Origin: Phalacrocorax aristotelis
Taxonomy: Eukaryota; Chordata; Aves; Suliformes; Phalacrocoracidae
NCBI RefSeq assembly: GCF_949628215.1
Contig: NC_134280.1
Coordinates: forward strand, 50,928,621-50,992,620
Length of the DNA stretch: 64,000 nucleotides
Direction: 5' to 3'
Positions within the stretch are counted from its first letter, which is position 1; every line of letters begins with the position of its first letter. The notes under the pieces were generated by a model. It saw only the letters and a list, made by a program, of their open reading frames with translations. It did no database searches and had not been told where the DNA came from. Positions 21,959 through 53,700 of this stretch are shown here, piece after piece. Both the position numbers and the translations under genes were made by a program.

Positions 21959-22112
21959 GCATCCCATCCTGCGATGACCCGGTGTGCCTGAGGCCCAGCA
22001 GCTGCAGGGATGGAGCTGAAGGTCTGGGTGGATGGGATCCAGAGGGTTGTCTGCGGTGTCTCGGAGCAAACCACCTGCCAAGAAGTGGTCATCGCCTTGG
22101 CGCGGGCCATCG
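21959..22112 (+). CDS. RASSF7: RASSF7 start-codon exon
   Basis: The acceptor 'tctccccacag' ends at 21958. The 51 bases 21959-22009 are 5' UTR with an in-frame TGA at 21989-21991. ATG at 22010 has G at -3 and G at +4. The exon ends after the first base of a Gly codon (donor GTGAGC at 22113), giving 34 codons plus one base of the RA domain. Confidence 0.92.
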
Positions 22113-25100
22113 GTGAGCCATCTCTGTCTGCTGGGGGGATGCTCCTTTGTGGGTGGAAGCGTCTGCCAAGGGGATGCCCATCTGCAGGAGCTTCCTGGGA
22201 AGAGGAGACCTTGGGTGGGTGGGGGTCCTGCTCTGGGGTGGTGGGGACGTCACCAGCTGCTGGCCGTGGGGCAGCAGCCTCGGCACACCGCTGCTGGCCA
22301 TGGCTTTCCCCATCTGACATGCTCACCTCCTCCTGGCAGGTCAGACAGGCCGCTATGTGCTGGTGCAGAAGCTGCGAGAGAAGGAGCGGCAGCTGCTGCC
22401 ACTGGAGTGCCCCTTGGAGTCGCTGGCCAAGTGCGGGCAGTATGCTAATGATGTGCAGTTCATCCTGCGCCGGACAGGCCCCAGCGTAGCTGAGCGGCCC
22501 TCATCAGAGGGCACTCCCCAAGCCCCTGAGAGGACGTTCATCAGGGCCAGCTTGCCCATCAAGCCCAGGCCTGCTGGCACGGATGCACCCCGTTCCCGGG
22601 AGCCAAAAAAATCCATGACCTTCAACTTGGGTCCTGCAGGCTCCAGCGACCCATTCGCCATGAGCCGCTGGAGGCACCAAGTGCGGGAAGGGATGGACTT
22701 GGAGGGCGATGGGGTTGTCCAGCCTTCCAAGGAAGAGCTATTTAGGAGAGTGCTGCGGCAGCAGGAGCAGCTGCATTCCTTGGAGGCCCACGGGGACACC
22801 TTGGAAATGGACCTACGGCTCTGGGAACGCAGCCGGCTCGCCGAGCAGGAGGATGAGATCCTCTACCTGGAGCACCTGGTGCGGAGGAACGAGACAGAGC
22901 TGGGTGAGGAGGAGTTTTGGCAGAGCGAGCTCCGGCTGGAGAAGGAGTGTGAGCGGGAGCGGCAGGAGCGAGTTAGGAGCCTGCGGGCCAGCCTGGAGGA
23001 GTACACCCAGAGGATCTATGAGCTGAGTGCTCGGACCGAAGCCCTACAGGAGGAGATCCAGTGGGAGATGGCTGAGAGGGCCAAAAGGGGAAAGGAGACC
23101 CATGCGCCCAGCCCCACAGAGCTGGAGGACATGGCCGCCAAGATGAAAAGGGACTTGGAGGCCAAAGTCAAGCAAGGCACCCAGCTAGAGAGCAACCTGG
23201 CCAGCGTGGAGAAGGCCTTGGAGGAAGCTGAAAGGAACCTGCAGGTATATAGGACTGTGTTCAAGCAGCTGCATGAGGTGGTGGGACCTTTGGGAGGGGA
23301 CAGGACCAGCTTTCCAGCAACATGGGGCTGATAGGTTGAGTGGGGTTGGTCCTGCCCCACCTGGCTGGTGTGCGTGGGGCTGGGTGCATGGAGGTGGCTC
23401 AGCGGCAGTGACCGCTGTCAGGGGATCACCACTACTCTTACCTGGCCAGCACAGGGTCCCAGACCTGTTGCACTCTGCAAGCTGCATCTGGGCTGGGGCT
23501 CCTGCTGGGTGGTGCACGGGGAGCACAGCATCACCCCGCTCCGGCACGGAAAATGGTGCTGGAGCAAATGGTCCATGTTCAGGGTCGGTAGCATTGGTGC
23601 AAGGGTCAATGTCATCTTAGATAAAGGAGTCATGGAGGGGCATAGCGTAGTTCCCCACGGTGCCTGTGCACAAAGCCTTTTGACCATGCAAGCTATGCAA
23701 GGACCTGGGCTCATCACGGGGGACTGCACAGCATGGAGGTGCAGCTGTGGGGCTGAGCCATGATGCCCCCCGGCTCACCTGTCCCAGACCCCAGCAGCAG
23801 GGGGTCCAGGCACTGCATGACTCCTGCCCTCTGCCCGCTGGGTCCCCTTTGGTGGGGCAAAAGGGAGAAGCTTTTGCCCAGCCAGACAGCAGTAGCCACC
23901 CTTCAAAAGGGCGGCCGTGCTTCCAGCATCTCTGTCTTGAGCACCTAGTTTGCGTCCAGCTTCTCTCAGCACCGCAGCAGCCAGCATTTGATGGCTGCTC
24001 ACACCCTCTTGTGGAGATGCAGCAAATCAGGGCTGTTCCCAAAACAATGCCTTCCTTGTCCCCGCCACCCGGGCACCCCCCTTCCCACAGGCCCTCAGAG
24101 AGGGGCAGCTGAGCAAAAGTACCCCCGAGGTCACCTCTGCCAGTTCTGGCCAGGTGAGCCCCAGCTGGGGAGCAGCCCTAGGGCAGGTATGCTAGCTGGT
24201 TTTGGAGCATGGGGGGGACATGCACCTCACCCTGTCCCCCCCGCCTCGGTGTGTGTGTTTTGCAGGCCCAGACCCAAGAGCTGGAGGAATTAAATAAGGA
24301 GCTGAGGCAGTGTAATTTGCAGCAGTTTATTCAGCAGACGGGGGCCACAGTGACTGTCCTGCAGGCCAGGTCCGAGGAGGATGCCCAGCCGGAGCCGAGC
24401 CCGCACGAGCTGCCAGCCTGCCGGAGAAACGGAGGTCAGCACGCTGCCGGCTCGGCCGCGGGGGCTGCTCCGCAGAACCCCTGCCCGCTCACTGCCTCCC
24501 CTTCCAAGGGGGTCAGCACCCCCTCCAAGGGGATCGGCTCTAAAGCTGCTGGCTCTGCCCTGAGTGCTGAGGTTAGGCAGCAGGGACGGGGTTTTGATGC
24601 TGGCACTGCAGTCGCTCACCACCCTGGGGTGTCTCTGAGGTTTGCCAGCCCTGGGGCTCCTTCTTCCTCCCAGTGAAGCCTTGGGGCTGCTCATAGCCAT
24701 GCTCAGGGGTCGGATTGCTGCTTTTGGGGTTGGGGTGGCCGCAGGGAGCTTTCCTTTGCAGCATTGCTGCATGCCACCATAGTGGCAGCAGTGAAAAGCA
24801 GGTGGCCAAAGGCCTGGGGCTGTGGGCTGGTGGGGATGGGCTCTGGCTGCTGCTGACCTCTTTGTGTTTGGTGAGGAAAGCGTGAGTGTGGTGCCCAGGA
24901 CCATGTCAGTGTCCACATTCTTGCAGGAAACAAGAGGAGGTGGCTGGGGGCCCTTGTGGAAAGGGATGGGGGAAAACAGGGGCCCCGTCATTTCTCTTCC
25001 AGAGCACCCAGAGAGGGTGACATGGCTGCCCCACAGTGCTGCAGTGGCCATGCTTGGTGAACACGGGAGGTGCAAGACCTGCCTGAGCCAGGCATTTTTC

Positions 25101-28983: not shown

Positions 28984-30871
28984 AGCGGTAGGAAGGAATT
29001 ACTCATTGTTATGAGATTAAAACAAAGCAAAGAAATTACTGGGGTTTTCCCTTAAAAAACAAACCAAAAGCCCAGCGTATGGTGCATGCTAGAGAGGGAA
29101 TGACTGGCTCAGGGGCAAGACAGGGATCCAAGTGTACAGGGTGGCTTGAGGGTGCTGTACCTGGGTGAGTAGGGAGTCATGTCCCCGCATCCCTTGGGTG
29201 CTGTGGGGCAGCTTCTGCCTTCCCTGTGGCAGGCTTCAGGGCTTCTCCCTCCGCAGATGCTTCTCGCTTCAGTGCCACCCAGAAATCACAAAGCAGAGGA
29301 CACACCTGTTTTTCACTGGTGAAGTCACAGCTGGTTTGGTTTGTTTTTTAAAATAAAATAAATCTGCAGACTAGATGCAGGCTCTGTCAGCACCAGGCAC
29401 CATTCAGCCTCCCTGGGGCTCCTCTCTTCCCTGCTCTACCTGATTTTTTTTATTTTTTTTTTAAGTATTGCATAAGAAAAATGGCTCCCAGCTCTTCACC
29501 CATCAACTCCGGACTGTGTTGGCTTGTCAGGCCAGGCATCCTCTGCAGACAGCGGTCAGGGTGCCAGTGCTGCCCCAGGCCAGTACAGTTTCTCAAGGGC
29601 AGCACAGCTGCAGACACTTGAAACACCCCAAATTTGCAGTCATGGATTTGTATGAGTTCCTCAGCGTTTGGGTTTGGTTTTGACCCTGTCTAAATTTCAT
29701 CTAGAGTGCTAGAAGCATTTGTGCTGCCTCCCAGCCCCTGGATTTGGCAAGCAGCTTTTAAAGCACACACTTCAGCACCAGTTACATAAGAAAAGGTGTG
29801 AATGACTGGAGGAGAAAATGCCTGTTGGTTTTGCTCCCCAAGTGGTGTGCAGATGCTCTGCTGCTTGCTCCTTGGCGCACAGCTCATACAAGGGTAGTGC
29901 ACTGCAGATGGAGAAGAGAAACTATTTGAACTCCCATGCATATCCATGCAGGGAGCATTGTCCGCTCTCCCACTGATGATTTTCCTTTCTCTGTCTCAGG
30001 GTAAAGACTGAGAGCATTCTACCTTGCCCTGAAAAAAAAAAAAAAAAGAAAAAATCACAAAGCGCTAGAGGAGGCTGGGAAATTTTCTTCTTTATGGATG
30101 AGCAAGTTTCTCTCCCAATGGAACCTCCTGCCAGCAGAATATTTTTTTTTATGTATTATATAAGTCCCTGCTTGCATTTAACTGACTTCCTCTTAAACAA
30201 TTTATGTGCTTCCCCTGTTCCTCACAGGCCAGCTTGATCCTTTGGCATGGCTCACCATGTAGGACCTGCCACTGGCACACAGTATAGACAGAACACAGGC
30301 ACTTCTGAGTGCGGTACTTGAAGAGTTAGTCCTGCTCACTTCCCTCTGCAAAGCACTGAAACAAGAGAATGAGATGTTTAGGAAGCACAGAGAATCCCTT
30401 CAGTTTAACAGACCTGACATTCAGCATCTTCCCCTCCTGAAAGGCACACCCATGCCTCTCCCCAAGTCTTACGGCATCAGTTCTGAGCAAGAGCTTTTAG
30501 CACCTGACTACTATTGTTACCAGGCTAAATATCACTTTACAAATCTGTTTATTAGCTTCTGAAAAACATGAAGTTAAGGGGCTTCTTAGCCCCTTTGTAT
30601 TTTTTCATCATTCGGGAGCACTCTGGGAATCTTGGGCTAGGGAAGCGGTGAAGGCACCAAGGCTGGGCTTTCCGCTTGAGGGACAACCAGGTCGCACCCT
30701 TCTGCTCTCCTTTTCAAGCCACCTTCACTGGCTACAGCAGCAAAATAAGAGATGGGAGGCACGGAGCATGCAACGCACATCAGATGTCACCGAGATGGCA
30801 CAATCTTCCTCTTCAGCTGGTATGGTGCCCTCGATTACAGTAATAAACAGCCAAACATTGGTTTAGCACTA

Positions 30872-30877
30872 TTTATT
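30872..30877 (-). terminator. Candidate minus-strand poly(A) signal
   Basis: TTTATT on the plus strand is AATAAA on the minus strand. It lies about 2 kb downstream of mir-210 in its transcription direction and is a possible 3' end of the host transcript. The link to that transcript is inference. Confidence 0.3.
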
Positions 30878-32900
30878 GAAAACTTCAGGTGACAGCACAG
30901 CAGGTTAGTTTTGAATCATGCTGCAAGAATGTTAAAAACAGGAATTGAGCTGTATGCTTCTTCCCCCCCCAGCTTACTGGCGAGAGACACAAATAAAAAG
31001 AAAAGGCAAAACCAAACAAATTTCACTTCAACCCCTTGCCTTTGCTTACTGGAGCTGAGCAGGATGGTTCTGTAGGTAGCGGGAAGTCAGAAGACATTCA
31101 TACCATGGCGCTGCTCGTGGGAACTGGGACAAGTCTTGCCAGGCAACCGGCAGAGCTGCTTCTGCCAGTGGTGTCTCCAGGGGTTAGTCATCGGGCAGGA
31201 CAGTCCCAAATGCAGGGCTGTTGCTTCAAAGAGAAACAGAGCGCCTTCGTTTTCAGATACAGGTTCGTTAAGTGCACGGTCTCCTATAGATGGGGCGGTA
31301 GGGGACAGCAGGGCTTCAGTTTCAGCTCACAGACACACTCACACACAGGCATATTTTGCACATCTTTCCCCCTCTCCCTGGCTCTCCAGATGGCTATGCC
31401 ATGCTCCCGCCTGCTCAGGACCAGCAGTGGGAAGATGCTGTAGGTGCAGCTAGGTAGAAGGAAAGCCGCCTGGAGCTGAGAACGCCGCAAACTTGTTTCC
31501 CCCTCCCCATCAAAAATGGCCCGATTGGCTTCTGAACGAGCATGAAAGCAGTTTTGGTAAATTCAGGTGTCTTTGCTCTCTTTCTAGCACGTTTGAGCAC
31601 CCTGGACTCACTCGGTCTGCGTGGGGCACAGAGTGAGCTGATTTTTCTTGCAGAAGAGCAGGTACTCCTCCGGGACCCAGAGGGAGAAACAACAAATGAA
31701 TGCAGGCGGGAGAGATGGGGACAGGCAAAATTTCTGTGAGAGACTTCATCCGTGCAGAGGATGTTGCTCTGCCTTCTGTGCAATTAACTACTTACTGACC
31801 AGAGCACTGCCGATGCCTTCAGATCAAGCCTTTACAGTGGTCCAAGACTACACCTGAGCAGCCCAAGCAAGGAGGAGAATACCTGAGCCCTTTCAGGGAC
31901 CTCAGCAGGCTGTGCCGAATCCTAGTTGGTTATTGAGCTTAAGCTGCTGATAAAGCTGTGCTGCGCTTCAAAAAAATACACTTTTCAACAACCCACCTTC
32001 TTCACCAGCCCGAAAATTGCAAAAGTGAACTTTGTAGGAGAAGCAATCTGCTTTGTCACTTCCTCCATTTCAAGTAACAGCCACCCTGGGCAGCTGGAGG
32101 AGTCCCTGCCTGGCTCGCCTTCCTGCTCCTCAGGACCATGAAGTCAGAGTCCCCCGTGTGACATCACAGCGCGATCACGCAAGGCAGCTCCGCCAGCACC
32201 CAGCCAGGGCCCAGGGGGCTCCCAGAACCCTAGTGCAAGTAGCAGAAAGCGGCAAGCAAAGGTGAGGGGCAGGATGGGAAACAAAATAGGAACAAAAAAG
32301 GAAAGCAAGGCTTGTTTCTGCTTTTCATTTAACAGACTAGAGAGTCTCTCTTTAAAGGTGACTCATCCAGGGCAATACCAGGCACGGTTTCTTCTATTAA
32401 CACACCCTTGGCAATAGCAGTTCAGTTAGTCACTGACTGGATATCAAGACGTCACCGGCTGGGATGAAGTGTCTCTTTAACTTGGTACGGAGTCCACTAG
32501 CACTTATTTACTTTGGAGAAGAGCAGGGGAGGAGAGAGAGGGGGTACGCCATCCCTCCTGTGCAACTTTACTGCTGACTCTTTGCGCCCACACACTGCCA
32601 CGGCCCGCTCCCCTCATCTCCACTTCCAGCCCCGCTGCAAGAAGCGTTAGATCTTTTCATGTTCTGATTGCAGGATGTTACTGGTTGCAAGTCCACCAGG
32701 CCAAGGATGGGAGGCAGCTGGAGGCTAGAGTGGCGTTGGTTGCAGGGTGCATGCCGCAGCCCCTCACCTAGGTGTTGGGGCAACTCCTTCACACACCAGA
32801 GCCTCTCACCTGGGTGTCGTGGAGGGGACGGAGGCGTCGCGGCGTCGAAGCGTGTGTCCGTGGAGGCGATGCAGCCGCACAGCGATGCCCGAGGAGCAGG

Positions 32901-32922
32901 TTAGCCGCTGTCACACGCACAG
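32901..32922 (-). ncRNA. MIR210: mature miR-210-3p
   Basis: 22-nt guide strand; seed (nt 2-8) TGTGCGT, identical to the known miR-210 seed. It differs from the human mature form only near the 3' end (A for G at position 21). Confidence 0.95.
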
Positions 32923-32939
32923 TGGAGTCGCCGAGAGCA

Positions 32940-32961
32940 CAATGTGCGTTAGTCAGTGGCT
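32940..32961 (-). ncRNA. MIR210: miR-210-5p arm
   Basis: 22-nt passenger arm beginning AGCCACTGAC and ending CATTG. Its first base is position 4 of the putative intron that begins at 32964. Confidence 0.85.
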
Positions 32962-33894
32962 CACCTGCTCCTGGAGAGTGACGGGGAGCGGCAGGGCCCA
33001 ACCTGCAGCAACGGGGGACACCCGGCGGCGTGAGGGATAGGGGGTGGGGGAATGGGGTGGCGAGGCGCCCGGGCCCCCGACGCGCCCCGGTACGGCGGGT
33101 TGCAGCTCCGCGCCCCCATCCCCGGGACAGGCTCCCTGCGCCGCGCCGCCGGTGCCGGGATGCTTCTCCTCCCCTGACGGCCGCCGCTCACCTGCGCTCC
33201 CGCCGCTCCGCTATCCCCAGGCCGCCGCCGCCGCCGCCAACTTCTCCCTCTGCCCCGGCCCGGCCTACACCGCGCGCCGCGGCCCCCGCCCCGCCCACCC
33301 CGCCGCTCCCGCCAATAGCGACGCCGCCCGCCCGCCCGCCGGCCCCGCCCTCGCGCCGTGGCGCCCAATGACACCCGCTCCCCGGAGCGGGGCGGGGCGA
33401 GGCGGGGCGGGGCACCCCCACACCCCCCCGTCAGTGACAGCGACGGGCGCGGCGCGTTCGCTTCTGCACGTCGCCGCTGCGGGGAGGAACCATTTGTACC
33501 TGTTGAACCGCCGCCCGCCTCCCGCTCACCCCGCCCCGCCCCCCCCCCCTTTTCCCTTTCCAACCTCGCCGCTTCGCCTTACGCCGGCGGCCCGCTGGCG
33601 GCGCCCCCCCCACCCTGCCGCCGCCCCCCGCGGGCAGACCCTTCACCCCTGCTGCCCCGTTCCCCACCGCCCCGTTCCCCCCCCTTCCCGCCCCCGCCCC
33701 GTGGTACGGTCCGCCGGGGCCGTGCCATCAGGGCAGTGTCGGGGCGCACGTACGCGGCCGGGGCGCGCGCGGGGGCCGTTGGCCGCGCGCGGGGGATCGT
33801 TGACGGCGCGCGCCGCCCAACCGCCACCCGCGGGCGGGAACAGGGGTGCCGTCGGCCGTCGTCCCCCCTCAGTAGCTGCCTGTCACGTCGTTGT

Positions 33895-41746: not shown

Positions 41747-44700
41747 GTAAATGCAGCCTCTCTGCATGTGCACAGCTATAGTTCTAGGTTGGAGAACCCA
41801 TTGGTTTAACCTCAAAAGAGAAGCAGGGATATATTTGTGACCCTTTATTTCTTTTTCCCTGATAATTTTGTTTCCTAAACTCTGTATCTTAAACTGCTGT
41901 CAGGCTTTCCTTGAGTTCTGAGGATCAAGCAGCGTTGATACCACTGAGGAAATCTGGGTTTCACTTTGTGTATGTAATATCCTGAGCAGGAGCTCTAGTG
42001 TGTCCTTCACTGTTCTGCCTGCCTGTCTGTATCAGGTACGTATTTCCTCTCTTCTCTTTTCTTTTTAAGAAAGCAATGGTGGAAATAGCTGTGATTCAGA
42101 AGATGATACCGGAAGTGAGGAGGAAGATGACGACACTGAGGGAGAGGGGGGTGAGGAGGACAAGGAGGAAAGTGAAGATGAAGAATTAGAAGGTAGGTCT
42201 GTTAATGTGCACTAACAGGCATATTTTTAATAATTGGAGGACAAGTGGGATGAAAGCTTTTAATCCAGAAATTAGCCATGAAATGTAAATTCACAGATGC
42301 TGCCATGTCAGGTCAATGCCCAAATCCTACAGTAATAAACAAACAAGTAATTTTCCCCAATTTCTAAGTTTTTAAAGCATTTGTATGTTTGAAGACTATC
42401 TGCTAGCCAAGGTGTTGTAGTTATAGTCAGTAGGAGAGAACTCTGCCCCAGCATGAGTAGAAAAGAAGTCAAAATTGCAGCAATGGCTGATGCTATTTTT
42501 TCGCTTAGGAAAAGCATGTTTGTTTGCTTTGGCATGGGACTCTAAAGTGAATGTTGTGATGGGGAGTTTTGGAAATAAATTACTACTGCTGTTAAGCCTA
42601 GGGAGGAGGGCAGAAGACTTGACTAATTCTTCTTTGAAAAAGGAGAGTAGATGTTACTTGGATTTGTTAATTTTACTGAAAAAGTACCCTGTAGCTGCAT
42701 GTAATTTTAAAACTGCTACATTCCAATTATTAATTGGATAGACAAAAATAGTGTTTTATCATATCTTAAAGCTTGTTGGGAAGGCAAGAACACAGTTTTC
42801 CAAGTTACTATTTAGACTGATTTGAACACAGACTAAAAAAGTTGACACCAGGTGCCAAATAGCTTTATTAATCCAGCATTTAGAGTATTCTCTGCTACAT
42901 CCAGACAGGAGAAGTCAATAAAAAAAGACAAGGGCCCCATTTTCATTATTTAAAAAAAACAACCCCAAAACAACAACAGCTGTCTTCCCTCCACAACCCC
43001 TGCCCACCCCCCCCCAGCCCCCCTAAAAAAACCCACACACCAACCAAACAAAAAAACAAAACAAAACACTGAATCAAAGTAAGTGAGAGGTTTTTTTGGT
43101 AACTTTTCACTGCTGCTTGAAAATGCCGACTTAATTCACAGGTCTTAAGGAAAAAACTAACACATGTGTCTGTATTTTGTACTAAAAATAAAAACACCTT
43201 TCAACAATGTGTGCTGAGTGTTTATAATCAATTTTTCTCAAAACTAAGCTTCTTTAAGCAGTCTCCAGCTAGGCACCTGGATCCCTTAACTCTCAAAATC
43301 ATGGTTTACAAGTGAAATCTTTAATCTGTTTTGCAGGTGAGTATATTGCTGCTGCTTGTCCTCTGGAGTGTCTATTTTAAAAAAAAAAGTTAGATACATG
43401 ATAACTTTATTATAACTTTATTTTCTAACTTCAGTGTTCAGTGGTAGTCTGACATATCGTATTTTCTTGTTGTTTTGATAATATGTTGTTTTTCTGCTGT
43501 CTGTCCTTTTAATCTCTGGCAAGACTAGTCACATTATCAGGCTTTATTTTTCACCAGAGTAATCCATTGCTTTTTAGTGAAGGGATTTAGGAGAAAAGAA
43601 AACAGCAAAAATGACTGCCTCAGACTGGGGAGACAGTGCTTTGCCATTGCAGCCCCATAAAATAAGCTTACCTGGAATTTTCTGTGGACTGGTACCCCAT
43701 CTGCCCACCCCCTCTGCCCTTGCTGCTGAAGTCCTGCAGCACACAAGAGTTGTTTTTCATCTCACTTTTTAAGATTGCGAAGACGACGATGACGAAGAGG
43801 AAGAGGAGGAAGAAACTGAGGCTGCTGTCGGGGGAATGACTGATTCTCTGAAATTAGAGCCACACATAAATGAAGCGAGCATTTCCTCTGATGAGGACAG
43901 CGAAAACTGCCCCATTTGCCTCAACACATTTAGGGATCAGGCTGTTGGGACTCCCGAGAACTGTTCCCATTACTTCTGCTTGGACTGCATTGTGGAGTGG
44001 TCTAAGGTGAGCTGTTTTGTCCCTGATGTCCTGTGGCCTGGTGTGCTCTGCATTCTCCCCTCCGATCCTGCTGTTCTGCTGTAATGGGAACAAAACACTG
44101 TAATATTTGTATTTTCTTTCTTAAGCTTTTTTACACAGACTTGGGTTACTGCTCTGTTTGGCAGGATTTGTGTTTGTGAAGTGTGGATCTGTCTTTCTTG
44201 TATCGTCCTGATCTGTTGTGTTCTCCGAAAGCTGTAATGTCATAAGCAAATGTGTTTCTAGGCATCTAAAACTTTTTTCAAGACAAGACACCAGTAATAC
44301 TATTCTTCTTTCTGTGTGTGTATGTATTTCTCTGTATATCTTTATCTCTTGTTGAATTGTGTTGTGGCCATTGGATGGGGATCTGTTGCAACAGTGAACT
44401 TTTAAACATAGGAAAGATATAAAAGAATACTGACTAAATCGTCAGTTTGCTCTGAATTCAGTTTTCAGTCAGAGTTCTTTGCCACCTAACTGTGTAGTTC
44501 CCATAATCATAACCCAGGATGAGAATTACAACAAAATGGACTGTGCATGCAGCAGCACCAGTGGTAATTAAATAAAAAATAAAAACACTTTTACTGAATA
44601 TATTTGTAAGCCATTTCCAGTTGCTTATTTGTCCAAAAGAATGAAAATGCCCTAAAACATGAGCAGTATTTCAAGGCAATGCTTGGAAGAATTTTGTTAC

Positions 44701-47700: not shown

Positions 47701-50700
47701 TCCTTTGCCCTTCAGGACTGCCTCCCAAGGGACTCTCCCAAACAGTGCCCTGAACAGGCTGAAGTCTGCCCTCTGGAAGTCCAAGGTGGCAGTTCTGCTA
47801 AACCCCCCCCCCCACACTTCTCCGATAATCGAAAACTCTGTCATTCTGTGATCGCTGTGCCCAAGATGGCTTCCAGCCATCACATCACCCACAAGTCCTT
47901 CTCTGTTCACAAACAACAGGTCCAGCGGGGCACCTTCCCTAGCTGGCTCACTCACCAGCTGTGTCAGGAAGTTATCTTCTGCACACTCCAGGAACCTCCT
48001 AGACTCTTTCCCTCTCTGCTCTATTGTATTTCCAGCAGACATCTAGTACATTGAAGTCCCCTGTGAGGACAAGGGCTAGCAATCGTGAGGCTTCTCCCAG
48101 CTGCTTATAGAATGCTTCATCTGCTTCTTGGGTGGTCTGTAACAGACTCCCACCATATCTGCCTTGCTGGCCTTCTCCCTGGTTCTTACCCATAAACACT
48201 CAACCCTATCATCACCATCATTAAGCTCTATAGAGTGCAAACACCCCCTAACATACAGAGCTACCCTGCCACCTCTCCTGCCTTGTCTGTCCCTTCTGAA
48301 GAGTTTGTAGTCATCCATTGCAGCACTCCAGTTGTGTGAGTCATCCCAGCACGCTTCTGTAACTGCCATTACATCACAGTTTTCCAGCTGCACAATGGCT
48401 TCCAGCTCCTCCTGTTTATTGCCCATGCTGTGTGCATTGGTGTAGATACACGTCAGTTGGGCTATTGATCCTGCCACCTTTTCGTGGGGAGAAGCCCTAA
48501 CTCCTATGTGACCATTCTCAGGCACTTCTGTGGTTTCTAACACATCAATAACATGTGTTTTCTGCCATGTGGATCTCCATCCCCTACTTCCACTGAGATG
48601 GTAGACTGAAGGACCTTGCTAGCACACTGTCTTTCAAACATTGGTGTGCCCCCCACCCCAGGCTTATCTCTAGCAAGACTGGTTTCATTCCTTCCCCCTT
48701 CAAATCTAGGTTAAAGCTCTTGCAATGAGCCCTGCTAACACCTGTGCAAAATGCCTTATCCCCTTTGAGACAGGTGTTACCCCATCTGCTGCCAGCAGGC
48801 CTGGTGTTGTGTACACCAACCCATGATCGAAAAACCCGAAATCCTGCTGGTGACACCAGGCTCAGAGGCAGGTATTGATCTCCTGGCTCTTCCTGTTTCT
48901 TCCCTCATCATTTCCTGCAACTGGATGGATAGAGGAGGATACTACTTGTGCTCCTGATCCCTTAACTAGTCATCCCAAAGCCCTGAAGTCTCTCTTGATT
49001 GCGCTTGGACTATCTGTTGCAACTTCATTGCTGCCTACATGAAAAATCAGTAATGGATAGTAATCAGAGGCCCATACCAGGGTAGGAAGCTTTCTCTTCA
49101 CATCTTAAACCTGGGCCCCAGGGAGGCAGCAGACTTCCCTAAGAAGTGGGTCCAGTCTGCATATTAGGCCCTCTGTTCCCATCAAAAGGGAGCCTCCTAT
49201 GACAATGACCCAGTTTTGATGCAGGGGATAGGCCAGCTTAACCTTGGCAACACCTCCAAGCTGGATGAACCATCATCCTCGTTACTGTTCGGTTCTACTT
49301 ACAGAGCCTCGTATCTATTAGGCAAGGGCACCTGGGAAGGTGAGGTAGTCACAGAGGAGACACACCTGCTGTGCCAGGCAGCAGGTAAATGAACCTGAGA
49401 AGATGAGTGTGAGTAAAATCAATGGCCAGGCACAGAGATATATTATCAGGCAGTGAATTTTGGCATGGGAAAGTGAAACACACTGTTTCACTCTTTTATT
49501 TCCTTTACCTTTTTCAGAGTTAAACACTATAGTACATCAGAAATAACAGTAGCATTTCCCCTTTTAGAAAAAGAACAAAGTTGGTCATGAAAATGTTGCT
49601 AATCTGAAGCTTAAACTCGTACTTGAAGGCTGTGGTCTCCCTGTGTTCCTTGCCTAGGGAACTTGGTCTAAGCACTTGGTTTTCATGGGAGGCATCTCAT
49701 TTACTTGGGAAACCTGCTTTAATTCTTTTTAGCAGTGTAACTTGAACATGAGTTGCTTCAAAAGTTCTGTGCTACTAACACATGTCACTTTAGCTGGGTT
49801 TTAATTGCTGAAGATGGAATTGAACAAATAACAGAAGCCAGGTTGGGTAATGTTGAAAGAATTTCCTGGGTAGCTTCTCTGTAAGTGGTTGGTGAGACTG
49901 ATCAGTCTAGTTGCTCAGCCTGTTGGGTAGAGAACATTTCAAAAGCCCTACCTAAGGGAGCATCATGCTCTCCTCTTTCCCTTTGAGGTTTGATAAGGAC
50001 TAGCATGGTTCTCAGGTGTTTGGCGTCAGTGTGGTTAGTCTCCAGTCCTGCAAGTAGCTCTATGAAGCCAGTGACTGACCAATGCTCTGCAACCTAGCTT
50101 TTGCAGTTACACAGAAATCCTGTTACCAGTTATCTTAATTATATCCGGTATATGTGGGATGCATTGTGCTTATTCAACGTAACAAGGCATTGCAGTTGAC
50201 CCGTGACTAGTCATGCAAAATAAAATGCTCGTAAGCGCCAATAAAGTTAATACTATGTTGGTTTGCAGGAAACCGATGTAGTTTCCTGATTGCCTGTCTC
50301 CCCAGCACCTCAATACTTCTCTCTTTTCTCTTTACCACCATCTGTTTTGGTTCTGCACATTTCTTGCAGCTTGGGTTCAAATGACAAGCAATACATCACA
50401 CAGCAAGGGAAGAACTCTCACTTGTCTGAGCTCTTTTGAGCCTAATGTGATCAGAATACCATCTAGTGACTACATCAGTGGACAAGGGAAGAGCCATGGA
50501 TGTCATCTATCTGGGCTTCTGTAAGGCCTTTGACTTAATCCCCCCACAATGTCCTTCTCTCTAAACTGGAGAGATAAGGATTTGATGGGTGGACTGTTTG
50601 GTGCATAAGGAACTGGCTGGATGGTTGCATCCAGAGAGTAGCGGTCAATGGCTTGATGTCCAGATGGAGACCAGTGACAAGTGGTGTCCCTTAAGGGTCC

Positions 50701-53700
50701 ATACTGGGACCGGTGCTGTTTAATGTCTTCATCAATGACGTAGACAGTGGGATCGAGTGTACCCTCAGCACATTTGCGGATGACACCAAGCTGAGTGGTG
50801 CAGTTGACACACCAGAAGGATGGGATGTCATCCAGAGAGACCTGGACAAGATGGAGAGGTGGGTCTGTGAGAACCCCATGAGGTTCAACAAGTCCAAGTG
50901 CAAAGTCCTGCACCTGGGTCAGGGCAACCCCCAATATCAGTACAGGCTGGGTGATGAAGGGATTGAGAGCAGCCCTGCAGAGAAGGACTTGGGGGTACTG
51001 GTGGATGAAAAGATGGACATGAACCTGCAATGTGCGCTCGCAGCCCAGAAAGCCACCCATATGCTGGGCTGCATCAGAAGCATGGCCAGCAATTTGAGGG
51101 AGGCGATTCTGCCCCTCTACTCTGCTCTGGTGAGGCCCCACCTGGAGTGCTGTGTCCAGCTCTGGGGTCCTCAGCACGAGAAGGATATGGAAATGTTTGA
51201 GTGGGTCCAGAGGAGGGCCACAGAAATGATCTGAGGGCTGGAACAGCTCTCTTTTGAGGATAGGCTGAGAGGGTTGGGGTTGTTCAGCCTAGAGAAGAGA
51301 AGGCTGCAGGGAGACCTTATTGCGGCCTTCCAGTACTTAAAGGGGGACTATAGGAAAGATGTGGGCAACCTCTTTAGCAAGGCCTGTTGTGACAGGACAG
51401 AGGGTAATGGTTTTAAACTAAAGGAGGATAGATTTAGACTGGATATAAGGAAAAAATTTTTTACTTTGAGGGTGCTGAAACACTGGAACAGGTTGCCCAG
51501 AGAGGTGGTAGATGCCCCATCCCTGGAAACATTCACGGTCAGGTTGGACAGGGTTCTGAGCAGCCTGCCTTAGTTGAAGACGTCCCTGCTCAGTGCAGGG
51601 GGGTTGGACCTCTAAAGGTCCCTTCCACCCCAAACCATTCTATGGTTTTATGATTGTATGATTCTATAATTTAAGACAGTTATATAACTATCAGGTAGCA
51701 TCGTTTCTCTGGAGATTGAAACTATGGCCTATGCATCTGCTTCTACCAAGCTTAAGAAAGTGTGTCCACATTATGTAGTGTGTGGATAGAGGTAAAAGGC
51801 TCTCCTTGGTAAGGAGCACATTGTTTGATTTTTATTTTACTTTTTTTTTAAATCTTTTCTCAAGGTATCACATGGAATGCCTTAATCCACCTCTGAGTGA
51901 AGTCCCTGTAGATGAATGGTTCTGTCCAGCCTGTGCCCCCATAAGTGTCAGTGCTGCTGCAGGTAAGGGTTTCATGATATCCAGTCAAAATAAATATTTT
52001 TCTCCGGACTTAGATAATGTGAAGCATTTGCTGTTTTGAAGAGATGTTTGATCTGCTTTAAATAATTGTTTTGATAGGCATTCTCACTTGAACCTAAAGA
52101 ATTGACTTGAACTCTTGACTGATGAGAGGATCTTGCTTATTAAGATTTTCATCTGAGGTTACAACTTGTGGAGCTGCTTCTTACAAGCATTCTTTAGCAT
52201 TCTTTAACCCTCCGGAGGCAATCCCAGCACCTTAGTGCCACTGCATTGCATTATGTTTGAAAGAATTTGTCAGTATCCTGACCTCAGATTGCCACGGTAG
52301 CAGTAATTTCTGTTACCTAGAAAATTGTCTTTCTGTTAACAGTCTGAAGCAGTGGTGTCTCTGCTCATTTTCTTTTGAGAGGATAATGTCTGCCTTTGGA
52401 GGTGACTAGTTTAAGAAAGGGAATACCAATTTTTTCTTTTTTGTCCAAAATTCTTGAAATGATTTTACCTGTAGAAAGGCAAATGACCTGGGCATCTTTT
52501 CTTTCAAGATACCGATCATGTCAGTGAAGAAGAGGTTGCTGCCCTCATGGCTGATGTTACTCCTACCACCAGTAGGCTGCGCCCTCATGTCCGAACGCGA
52601 GCTATAGCCAGGACTCGGCAGAGCGAACGCGTTAGAGCAACAGTAAATAGAAACCGGATAACAACAGCGCAACAAATTCAGGTATTTAGGAGTATTTGCT
52701 AACAATCCTCTGGAAGAACATTGTGGAAGTGTTGAAATGAGTCCCTCCCTTAAGTAGTTCAGCTGCCTGTGTTGACTGTTGATAGCATAAACGTTGTTAG
52801 CTGTGGAGTTCTTTTAAACTGAGATGTAGAACATGGGCAAATTGAGTGCAGCACACGACCAAGACTCTTTATTTTGAAATCTGCAGTAGCTCCCTCTCTT
52901 AATCTGCGTTTTTATAATCTGTTGTGAGCAAAATTGTATTGTTATTCCCAGTGGCTGTTAATGCATAATTTGTGCACCACTTCTGTGTTTTTAGCATACT
53001 TGTTGGCGAGATAGGGCATCTTTTTTTTGACATTTGTGTATTTCCTTGTTTGTCCTCCTACTTTCCCATATCAGTAGGATCTGTTGGCCAATTTCAGCCA
53101 AATTGAAGAGAAAAAATTAGTATTTTTAATGTTTCTATGTTTATGAAAATCAGCCTCTTACTGAAGGGAAAAAACTCAGATGCTAGTGTCCTCAGTGATG
53201 TGGCAGTATGAGTTCAACCACATTAATAGGTACCAGAGAATCTATGCAAGAAAGTATCCCAAATTCCCAAGGTCCCTTAAACCCTTTACTCAATGAACTG
53301 TTTACTGAAGATGACTGCAGCTGAGATATTTCTGGATGTTTCTGTTGGCTGGGATAATTACGATCCTTAAGGTAAAAATTAGTATGCTGCAAACTGAAAC
53401 CTTCAAACTTTGGGATCTCCTGCCTGCTTTGCCCTCTGGCTTTAGCCAAAGCACGGTACCTGTCACTTGCATAAATACAAAAGCCTTAAATTGCACAGGA
53501 GCATATGGTGACTTAGTGTGGATGCAGAACCTGTAAATAACCTCCCTGGGACTAATGATATGTTAATTGGTTCTTCATTAGTGCTGCTGTTGAATTTGGT
53601 AGAAAAGTGTGAAATTCTGCAACTTCAGAAAGGAAGAGGAGGATCTGATGTGATGTAAGGAAAATTTGGCTTCCCTTGGGGATGGTCAACCATGGGAATA

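What the first reader, a model, noticed from the sequence alone, without database searches (positions are those of the whole stretch)
32885..33010. mir-210 hairpin straddles a splice donor and may abut a 38-nt exon
Seen: on the minus strand the consensus donor CAG/GTGAGC places the exon end at 32965 and the intron start at 32964. The miR-210-5p arm starts at intron position 4, and the last 7 exon bases (32971-32965) pair in the perfect basal stem. An acceptor 'gttgctgcag' at 33003 would define a tiny 38-nt exon (33002-32965). If the donor is used, U1 binding and Drosha processing compete for the same bases. Such splice-site-overlapping microRNAs are known elsewhere; whether it is known for bird mir-210 I cannot say.
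Basis: partly seen in the sequence, partly recalled or inferred. Interest (0 to 1): 0.7.

Follow-up and report, generated by a model that had tools for sequence, protein, structure and literature searches.

The report
Splice-donor motif inside bird mir-210 hairpin
A bird's oxygen-stress microRNA gene, mir-210, carries a strong splice-site sequence in the very bases where the microRNA is cut out, but no RNA data at hand show that cells use it, and a standard intronic microRNA explains the locus more simply.

Summary
The sequence observation is exact. On the minus strand an 80-bit mir-210 hairpin (32975-32879) contains CAG|GTGAGC with exon end 32965 and intron start 32964. The 5p arm, sequenced in chicken, starts at intron base 4; the last seven exon-like bases are fully paired; an acceptor-like AG at 33003 gives a 38-nt interval. 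The donor ranks 20 of 6,290 GTs in the window and is the strongest in 27 conserved hairpins scored here.

An identical donor outside the hairpin lies at 33192; its use would leave mir-210 wholly intronic, as reviews report for human. Further donors lie at 32810 and 32768. The 38-nt exon is not the best candidate: a 161-nt exon holding nearly the whole hairpin scores higher. If the neighbouring bases are taken as given, a donor-making dinucleotide has a 2-in-16 chance, and the Rfam consensus has no GT there.

One new result: four strong donors within 430 nt on the sense strand (0 of 3000 shuffles reach three; stretch chosen after seeing it). The locus is probably a spliced host gene. Folding predicts the hairpin donor is open only until the 3' arm is transcribed. 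No bird or reptile relative or RNA-seq was reachable.

The parts
32879..32975 (-). mir-210 precursor hairpin
   Evidence: Rfam RF00679, 80 bits; MFE -48.2 kcal/mol; single locus in the genome
32940..32961 (-). miR-210-5p arm; Drosha 5' cut inferred at 32962|32961
   Evidence: identical 22-mer sequenced in chicken cells as novelMiR_332 (PMC9876980)
32901..32922 (-). miR-210-3p arm (extent inferred from a 2-nt overhang)
32959..32967 (-). donor-like CAG|GTGAGC in the basal stem, exon end 32965
   Evidence: PWM 11.17, rank 20 of 6,290 GTs; 8 of 9 bases paired
33186..33194 (-). identical donor-like CAG|GTGAGC upstream of the hairpin, exon end 33192; proposed main exon-1 donor
   Evidence: opening cost 5.8-10.2 kcal/mol over the contexts tried
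32804..32812 (-). donor-like CAG|GTGAGA, exon end 32810
   Evidence: PWM 10.83, rank 33; in a 23-nt 83% repeat with the next part
32762..32770 (-). donor-like TAG|GTGAGG, exon end 32768
   Evidence: PWM 9.77, rank 46
33003..33017 (-). acceptor-like CCCCCGTTGCTGCAG, exon start 33002
   Evidence: PWM 7.92, rank 284 of 9,640 AGs; CTCAC branch-like motif about 28 nt upstream (motif recalled)
32971..32985 (-). stronger acceptor-like CCCGTCACTCTCCAG reaching into the hairpin base, exon start 32970
   Evidence: PWM 9.08, rank 127
33467..33471 (-). ACGTG, possible hypoxia response element core, about 490 nt upstream of the hairpin
   Evidence: RCGTG occurs 90 times in the window; function inferred

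Best explanation
This is the single-copy mir-210 gene of a bird, in a GC-rich, probably spliced host transcript like human MIR210HG. Transcription starts upstream (about 33.3 kb, inferred). The strong donor at 33192, outside the hairpin, ends exon 1, so the hairpin lies in intron 1 and Drosha cuts it at 32962|32961 in the ordinary way. The second CAG|GTGAGC at 32965 is a strong donor sequence buried in the basal stem. It is mostly or wholly silent because the hairpin closes over it and Drosha cuts three bases into its would-be intron; occasional use would destroy the hairpin and cost one miR-210. Shown: motifs, hairpin, 5p start (from chicken), predicted folding energies, clustering of donor motifs. 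Inferred: transcription start, use of 33192, silence of 32965.
For: 80-bit mir-210. The chicken 5p read begins at intron base 4, not base 1, as a Drosha product should. Same 9-mer outside the hairpin at 33192. Four donor motifs of 9.7 or more in a 601-nt sense stretch, 0 on the other strand; 0 of 3000 dinucleotide shuffles reach 3, so a spliced or U1-bound sense transcript is likely. Opening cost of 32965 rises from 6.1-7.9 to 13.6-16.0 kcal/mol once the 3' arm is made; U1 duplex -11.3. Human miR-210 is called intronic in AK123483 (PMC10742176 and PMC4060094, passages). A let-7 hairpin (L013) carries GAG|GTGAGG (10.3) at a like place, so such motifs also arise in hairpins for other reasons.
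Against: No transcript evidence at all: neither use of 33192 nor silence of 32965 was shown. The mir-210 donor is the best of 27 hairpins and as strong as 33192. U1 may bind before the 3' arm is transcribed. Opening cost of 33192 was not low in every context (5.8-10.2 kcal/mol), and in short contexts without the 3' arm 32965 opens as easily (6.9-7.8). The stretch for the shuffle test was chosen after the cluster was seen, and another minus-strand stretch of the window holds three such motifs (37367, 37363, 37028). Start site and human exon structure were not checked by sequence.
Confidence: 0.55

Rival explanations
1. True splice-site-overlapping microRNA: 32965 is a used alternative donor (of the 38-nt exon 33002-32965, or of a longer first exon that ignores 33003). 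Splicing there removes the 5' side of the basal stem and prevents miR-210 production; Drosha cutting removes the donor. The two outcomes exclude each other, decided by whether U1 binds before the 3' arm emerges.
For: Donor rank 20 of 6,290; donor cluster on the sense strand beyond chance; donor opens at 6.1-7.9 kcal/mol in nascent RNA ending at 32900 or before; acceptor with pyrimidine run and branch-like motif. Candidate exons of 25-50 nt this strong are commoner in the window (5, this one included) than in the reversed-sequence control (1). Competition of this kind is described for miR-34b and miR-412 (PMC8465124, passages).
Against: 2-in-16 conditional chance. Rfam consensus lacks GT. A candidate exon with pair score 19 or more ends in 3 of 27 hairpins, mir-210 included, and four other 25-50 nt candidate exons in the window score higher. 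38 nt is short for exon definition (recalled). PMC8465124 and PMC11347158 (passages) cite later work finding no general effect of processing on endogenous exon inclusion.
Confidence: 0.27
2. The hairpin is exonic: the exon starts at 33002 or 32970 and ends at 32810 or 32768. The donor at 32965 is skipped, and Drosha cutting destabilises the spliced RNA.
For: 32970-32810 (161 nt) is the highest-scoring candidate exon starting between 33150 and 32500, 19.91; 33002-32810 scores 18.75.
Against: Reviews place the human hairpin in an intron; 32810 and 32768 share a 42-nt-spaced repeat, so they may be copies of one sequence accident.
Confidence: 0.1
3. The donor-like sites are U1 landing sites near a promoter that suppress premature 3' end formation (telescripting) rather than splice donors; the hairpin site is one of four.
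For: Four strong U1-type motifs downstream of a GC-rich stretch, none on the opposite strand of the same 601 nt.
Against: The four sites do not separate this from ordinary alternative donors. Between 33000 and 31000 no minus-strand AATAAA or ATTAAA is listed; the next ones downstream are 30872-30877 and 30548-30553, so little close by needs suppressing.
Confidence: 0.06

Closest known systems
mir-210 (Rfam RF00679), host MIR210HG / AK123483 in human
   Same: Hairpin family, 5p arm as in chicken, HRE-like core upstream, RASSF7-like and PHRF1-like neighbours (gene names and human order recalled)
   Different: GGTG instead of the family consensus GGGC at the 5' Drosha cut, which completes a strong donor; intronic place not shown here
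Splice-site-overlapping microRNAs (miR-34b, miR-412, miR-222, named in PMC8465124, passages)
   Same: A splice signal and a Drosha hairpin share bases, so the products would exclude each other
   Different: Here use of the site is unproven; miR-34b and miR-412 sit on acceptors, this one on a donor
3'-tailed mirtrons (recalled)
   Same: Donor close to the pre-miRNA 5' end
   Different: The 5p arm starts at intron base 4, not base 1; long basal stem suited to Drosha
Drosha-bound pre-miRNA-like alternative exon (PMC4006729, search listing and start of abstract only)
   Same: Hairpin, Drosha and splicing at one place
   Different: By its title Drosha promotes splicing of that exon; here competition is predicted

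Membership tests
mir-210 (RF00679) | Covariance model score above the gathering cut-off | tested here: met
   80 against 50 bits, model 1-96
mir-210 (RF00679) | Mature arm expressed in birds | tested here: met
   The exact 5p 22-mer is listed as a sequenced chicken small RNA (PMC9876980, passages); whether this window is chicken is not known
Splice-site-overlapping microRNA | Splice-site sequence within the hairpin | tested here: met
   CAG|GTGAGC at 32967-32959
Splice-site-overlapping microRNA | The site is used: spliced RNA ends there | not testable with these tools
   No RNA reads or transcript collections for birds
Splice-site-overlapping microRNA | Site conserved together with the hairpin in close relatives | not testable with these tools
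   No other bird or reptile genome reachable; own genome holds one copy. The 0 hits in viral contigs and genome contigs are uninformative, since those collections are viral and prokaryotic
Splice-site-overlapping microRNA | GT kept across the wider mir-210 family | tested here: inconclusive
   The Rfam consensus has GGGC here, in lower case (weakly conserved); single members were not seen
Mirtron | Mature 5' arm begins at the first intron base | tested here: not met
   5p begins at intron base 4

The most novel reading that the evidence does not exclude
In birds the mir-210 hairpin is a timed choice: if U1 binds the donor during the roughly 60-70 nt of transcription before the 3' arm appears, the RNA is spliced at 32965 and no miR-210 forms; if the hairpin closes first, Drosha cuts and the donor is lost. 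Transcription speed or U1 level, both able to change under stress, would then set miR-210 output after transcription has begun.
Probability: 0.15. Interest if true: 0.65.

Novelty: new member of a known kind. Interest (0 to 1): 0.36.

Why it matters
miR-210 is the standard hypoxia microRNA, and its output is mostly explained by HIF-driven transcription. A donor in the Drosha site would add a second control during RNA processing, in a conserved single-copy gene where it is easy to test. If the site is silent, the case still shows how hairpins can hide strong donors, and why motif scans can overcall splice-site-overlapping microRNAs.

Tried and rejected
Mirtron reading: rejected, the 5p arm starts at intron base 4. 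38-nt exon as something special: rejected, four other candidate exons of 25-50 nt in the window score higher (the reversed-sequence control has one in all). Structure forces the GT: rejected; among the 16 dinucleotides at donor +2/+3 the fold ranges from -45.8 to -52.3 kcal/mol, and the two donor forms (UA, UG) tie with UC at -48.2, neither best nor worst. Antisense mir-210 match (49.5 bits) as a mirror microRNA: not pursued; antisense matches of 37.7 (mir-17), 57.9 and 45.1 (mir-34) and 45.9 bits (mir-30) also occur in the same genome. Relatives: a 3p pattern in viral contigs and genome contigs, which hold no bird genomes by design, gave 0 hits. A text search for six 5p or precursor strings found 4 papers, none holding any of the four strings that carry donor bases; I opened one of the four. 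A search for six flank strings found 2 papers, not opened, whose titles do not concern mir-210. Papers on splice-site-overlapping microRNAs PMC3794580 and PMC6097652 are not held; I know them only from citing passages. A whole-genome DNA search for another copy or a spliced retrocopy, which could show splicing, did not complete. One search scored 18 hairpins without turning minus-strand loci; it is replaced (21 hairpins; 27 hairpins). Left out of those counts: L002 and the antisense rows of L003, L020, L021 and L023. One search gave ranks out of 10,998 donor-type and 13,385 acceptor-type sites, which are all stretches scoring above -5, not only GT or AG sites; one search gives the true totals (6,290 and 9,640), used here.

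Full report
Observation. Every coordinate in the finding holds. On the minus strand the sequence reads ...TTGCTGCAG|GTTGGGCCCTGCCGCTCCCCGTCACTCTCCAGGAGCAG|GTGAGCCACTGACTAACGCACATTG.... The exon-like interval 33002-32965 is 38 nt; intron-like sequence begins at 32964. Rfam places mir-210 at 32975-32879 with 80 bits. The last seven exon-like bases pair perfectly. The 141-nt region folds at z = -2.99 against shuffles, 0 of 200 as good.

What it is. The window is C5:50928621-50992620 of a 1.279-Gb genome, and that genome has one mir-210 place, matched on both strands. RA-domain exons of RASSF7/8 type lie at 21992-23328, and a RING exon at 43773-44081 that I recognise from memory as PHRF1; this fits the human order around MIR210HG (recalled). 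A fragment with a reverse transcriptase domain lies at 50695-51231; I take it for a CR1 element (recalled). The exact 5p 22-mer is listed as a sequenced small RNA of chicken cells (novelMiR_332; PMC9876980, passages only). Its last 21 bases also occur in one zebrafish paper, one flounder paper and one review on aquatic animals (listing only). This puts the Drosha cut at 32962|32961, three bases into the would-be intron, and speaks against a mirtron, whose 5' end would be intron base 1.

How strong is the donor. With a recalled weight matrix it scores 11.17 of at most 12.57; 20 of 6,290 GT sites score as high or higher. The acceptor at 33003 ranks 284 of 9,640 AG sites. As a base rate I scored conserved hairpins of this genome: mir-210 plus 26 others (5 of mir-17, 8 of let-7, 4 of mir-181, 3 of mir-34, 6 of mir-30). 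Donor score 8 or more: 5 of 27; 10 or more: 2 of 27; 11 or more: 1 of 27, mir-210. A candidate exon of 20-250 nt ending in the hairpin with pair score 19 or more: 3 of 27, mir-210 included. A let-7 hairpin (L013) shows GAG|GTGAGG at a comparable place. So the donor is unusual in strength, while the exon pair is less so. In macaque, 6 of 1,455 pre-miRNAs overlap intron-exon junctions (PMC7357559, passages).

Is the GT explained by the hairpin. In the Rfam model the donor +2 and +3 positions fall in a small internal loop with weak consensus GC. The other donor letters are stem or mature-arm bases, some of them only weakly conserved in the model. With all of these taken as given, 2 of 16 dinucleotides complete the strong donor; if the stem letters are free too, the chance is smaller. 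Folding the 16 variants shows that pairing neither demands nor forbids the GT.

Neighbouring splice signals. The same 9-mer stands at 33194-33186, 227 nt upstream. Two further donors stand at 32810 and 32768, partly copies of each other (23 nt, 83%, spacing 42). Four sites of 9.7 or more in the 601-nt sense stretch 33300-32700 compare with a shuffle mean of 0.059; 5 of 3000 shuffles reach two and none reaches three; the opposite strand has none, and this is the densest cluster in the window. Caveats: I chose the stretch after seeing the cluster, and one other minus-strand stretch holds three (37367, 37363, 37028). With the hairpin site set aside and the repeat pair counted once, two remain. 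I take this as evidence that the sense transcript is spliced or U1-bound. Among candidate exons the best is 32970-32810 (19.91, 161 nt), then the 38-nt exon (19.09).

Mechanism. U1 pairing is the same for the donors at 32965 and 33192 (-11.3 kcal/mol). In transcripts growing from 33060 the cost of opening 32965 is 6.1-7.9 kcal/mol while the 3' end lies at 32950-32900, 9.9 at 32895, and 13.6-16.0 from 32890 on; for 33192, in transcripts from 33300, it is 5.8-9.8. So U1 is predicted to lose the hairpin site once the stem is complete, while 33192 stays competitive. Upstream, ACGTG at 33471-33467 and ATTGG motifs suit a hypoxia-driven promoter, though ACGTG/GCGTG is common in the window (90 matches); one study reports four HREs just upstream of human MIR210HG (PMC4827084, passages). 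Two reviews call human miR-210 intronic in AK123483 (passages). I therefore favour the plain arrangement: exon 1 ends at 33192, the hairpin is intronic, and the 32965 donor is mostly silent.

Literature. Searches listed no paper whose title or shown start of abstract describes a splice donor in a bird mir-210 hairpin; the lists shown hold 8 to 20 papers each. Five papers on splice-overlapping, hosted or intragenic microRNAs that I searched by term (PMC8465124, PMC7719101, PMC11347158, PMC3675212, PMC7357559) have no occurrence of 'mir-210' in the main text. The library lacks most subscription papers and the two primary reports I asked for, so absence from print is not shown.

Limits. No RNA reads, no other bird or reptile sequence, recalled weight matrices, and a genome search machine that answered 6 of 41 requests. 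The central question, whether 32965 is ever spliced, is open.

Noticed in passing
window 33300-32700, minus strand: Four strong donor-like U1 sites on the sense strand, none on the other; 0 of 3000 shuffles reach three. The densest such cluster in the window.
   Followed up: partly
window 37367-37028, minus strand: Three further strong donor-like sites (37367, 37363, 37028) within 430 nt on the minus strand, with no gene known to me there.
   Followed up: no
window 32889-32985, plus strand: The antisense strand of the hairpin scores 49.5 bits, just under the mir-210 cut-off of 50; antisense matches also occur for mir-17, mir-34 and mir-30 in this genome.
   Followed up: partly
window 32758-32822: Direct repeat of 23 nt, 83% identical, 42 nt apart, each copy carrying a strong minus-strand donor.
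   Followed up: partly
L013, reverse strand: A let-7 hairpin has GAG|GTGAGG at the start of its mature arm (PWM 10.3) and an acceptor-like site (10.0) inside the hairpin.
   Followed up: no
window 50695-51231, plus strand: Reverse transcriptase fragment (PF00078, E 6.5e-9), probably a CR1 element (recalled).
   Followed up: no
window 43773-44081, plus strand: RING-finger exon resembling PHRF1 (gene name recalled).
   Followed up: partly
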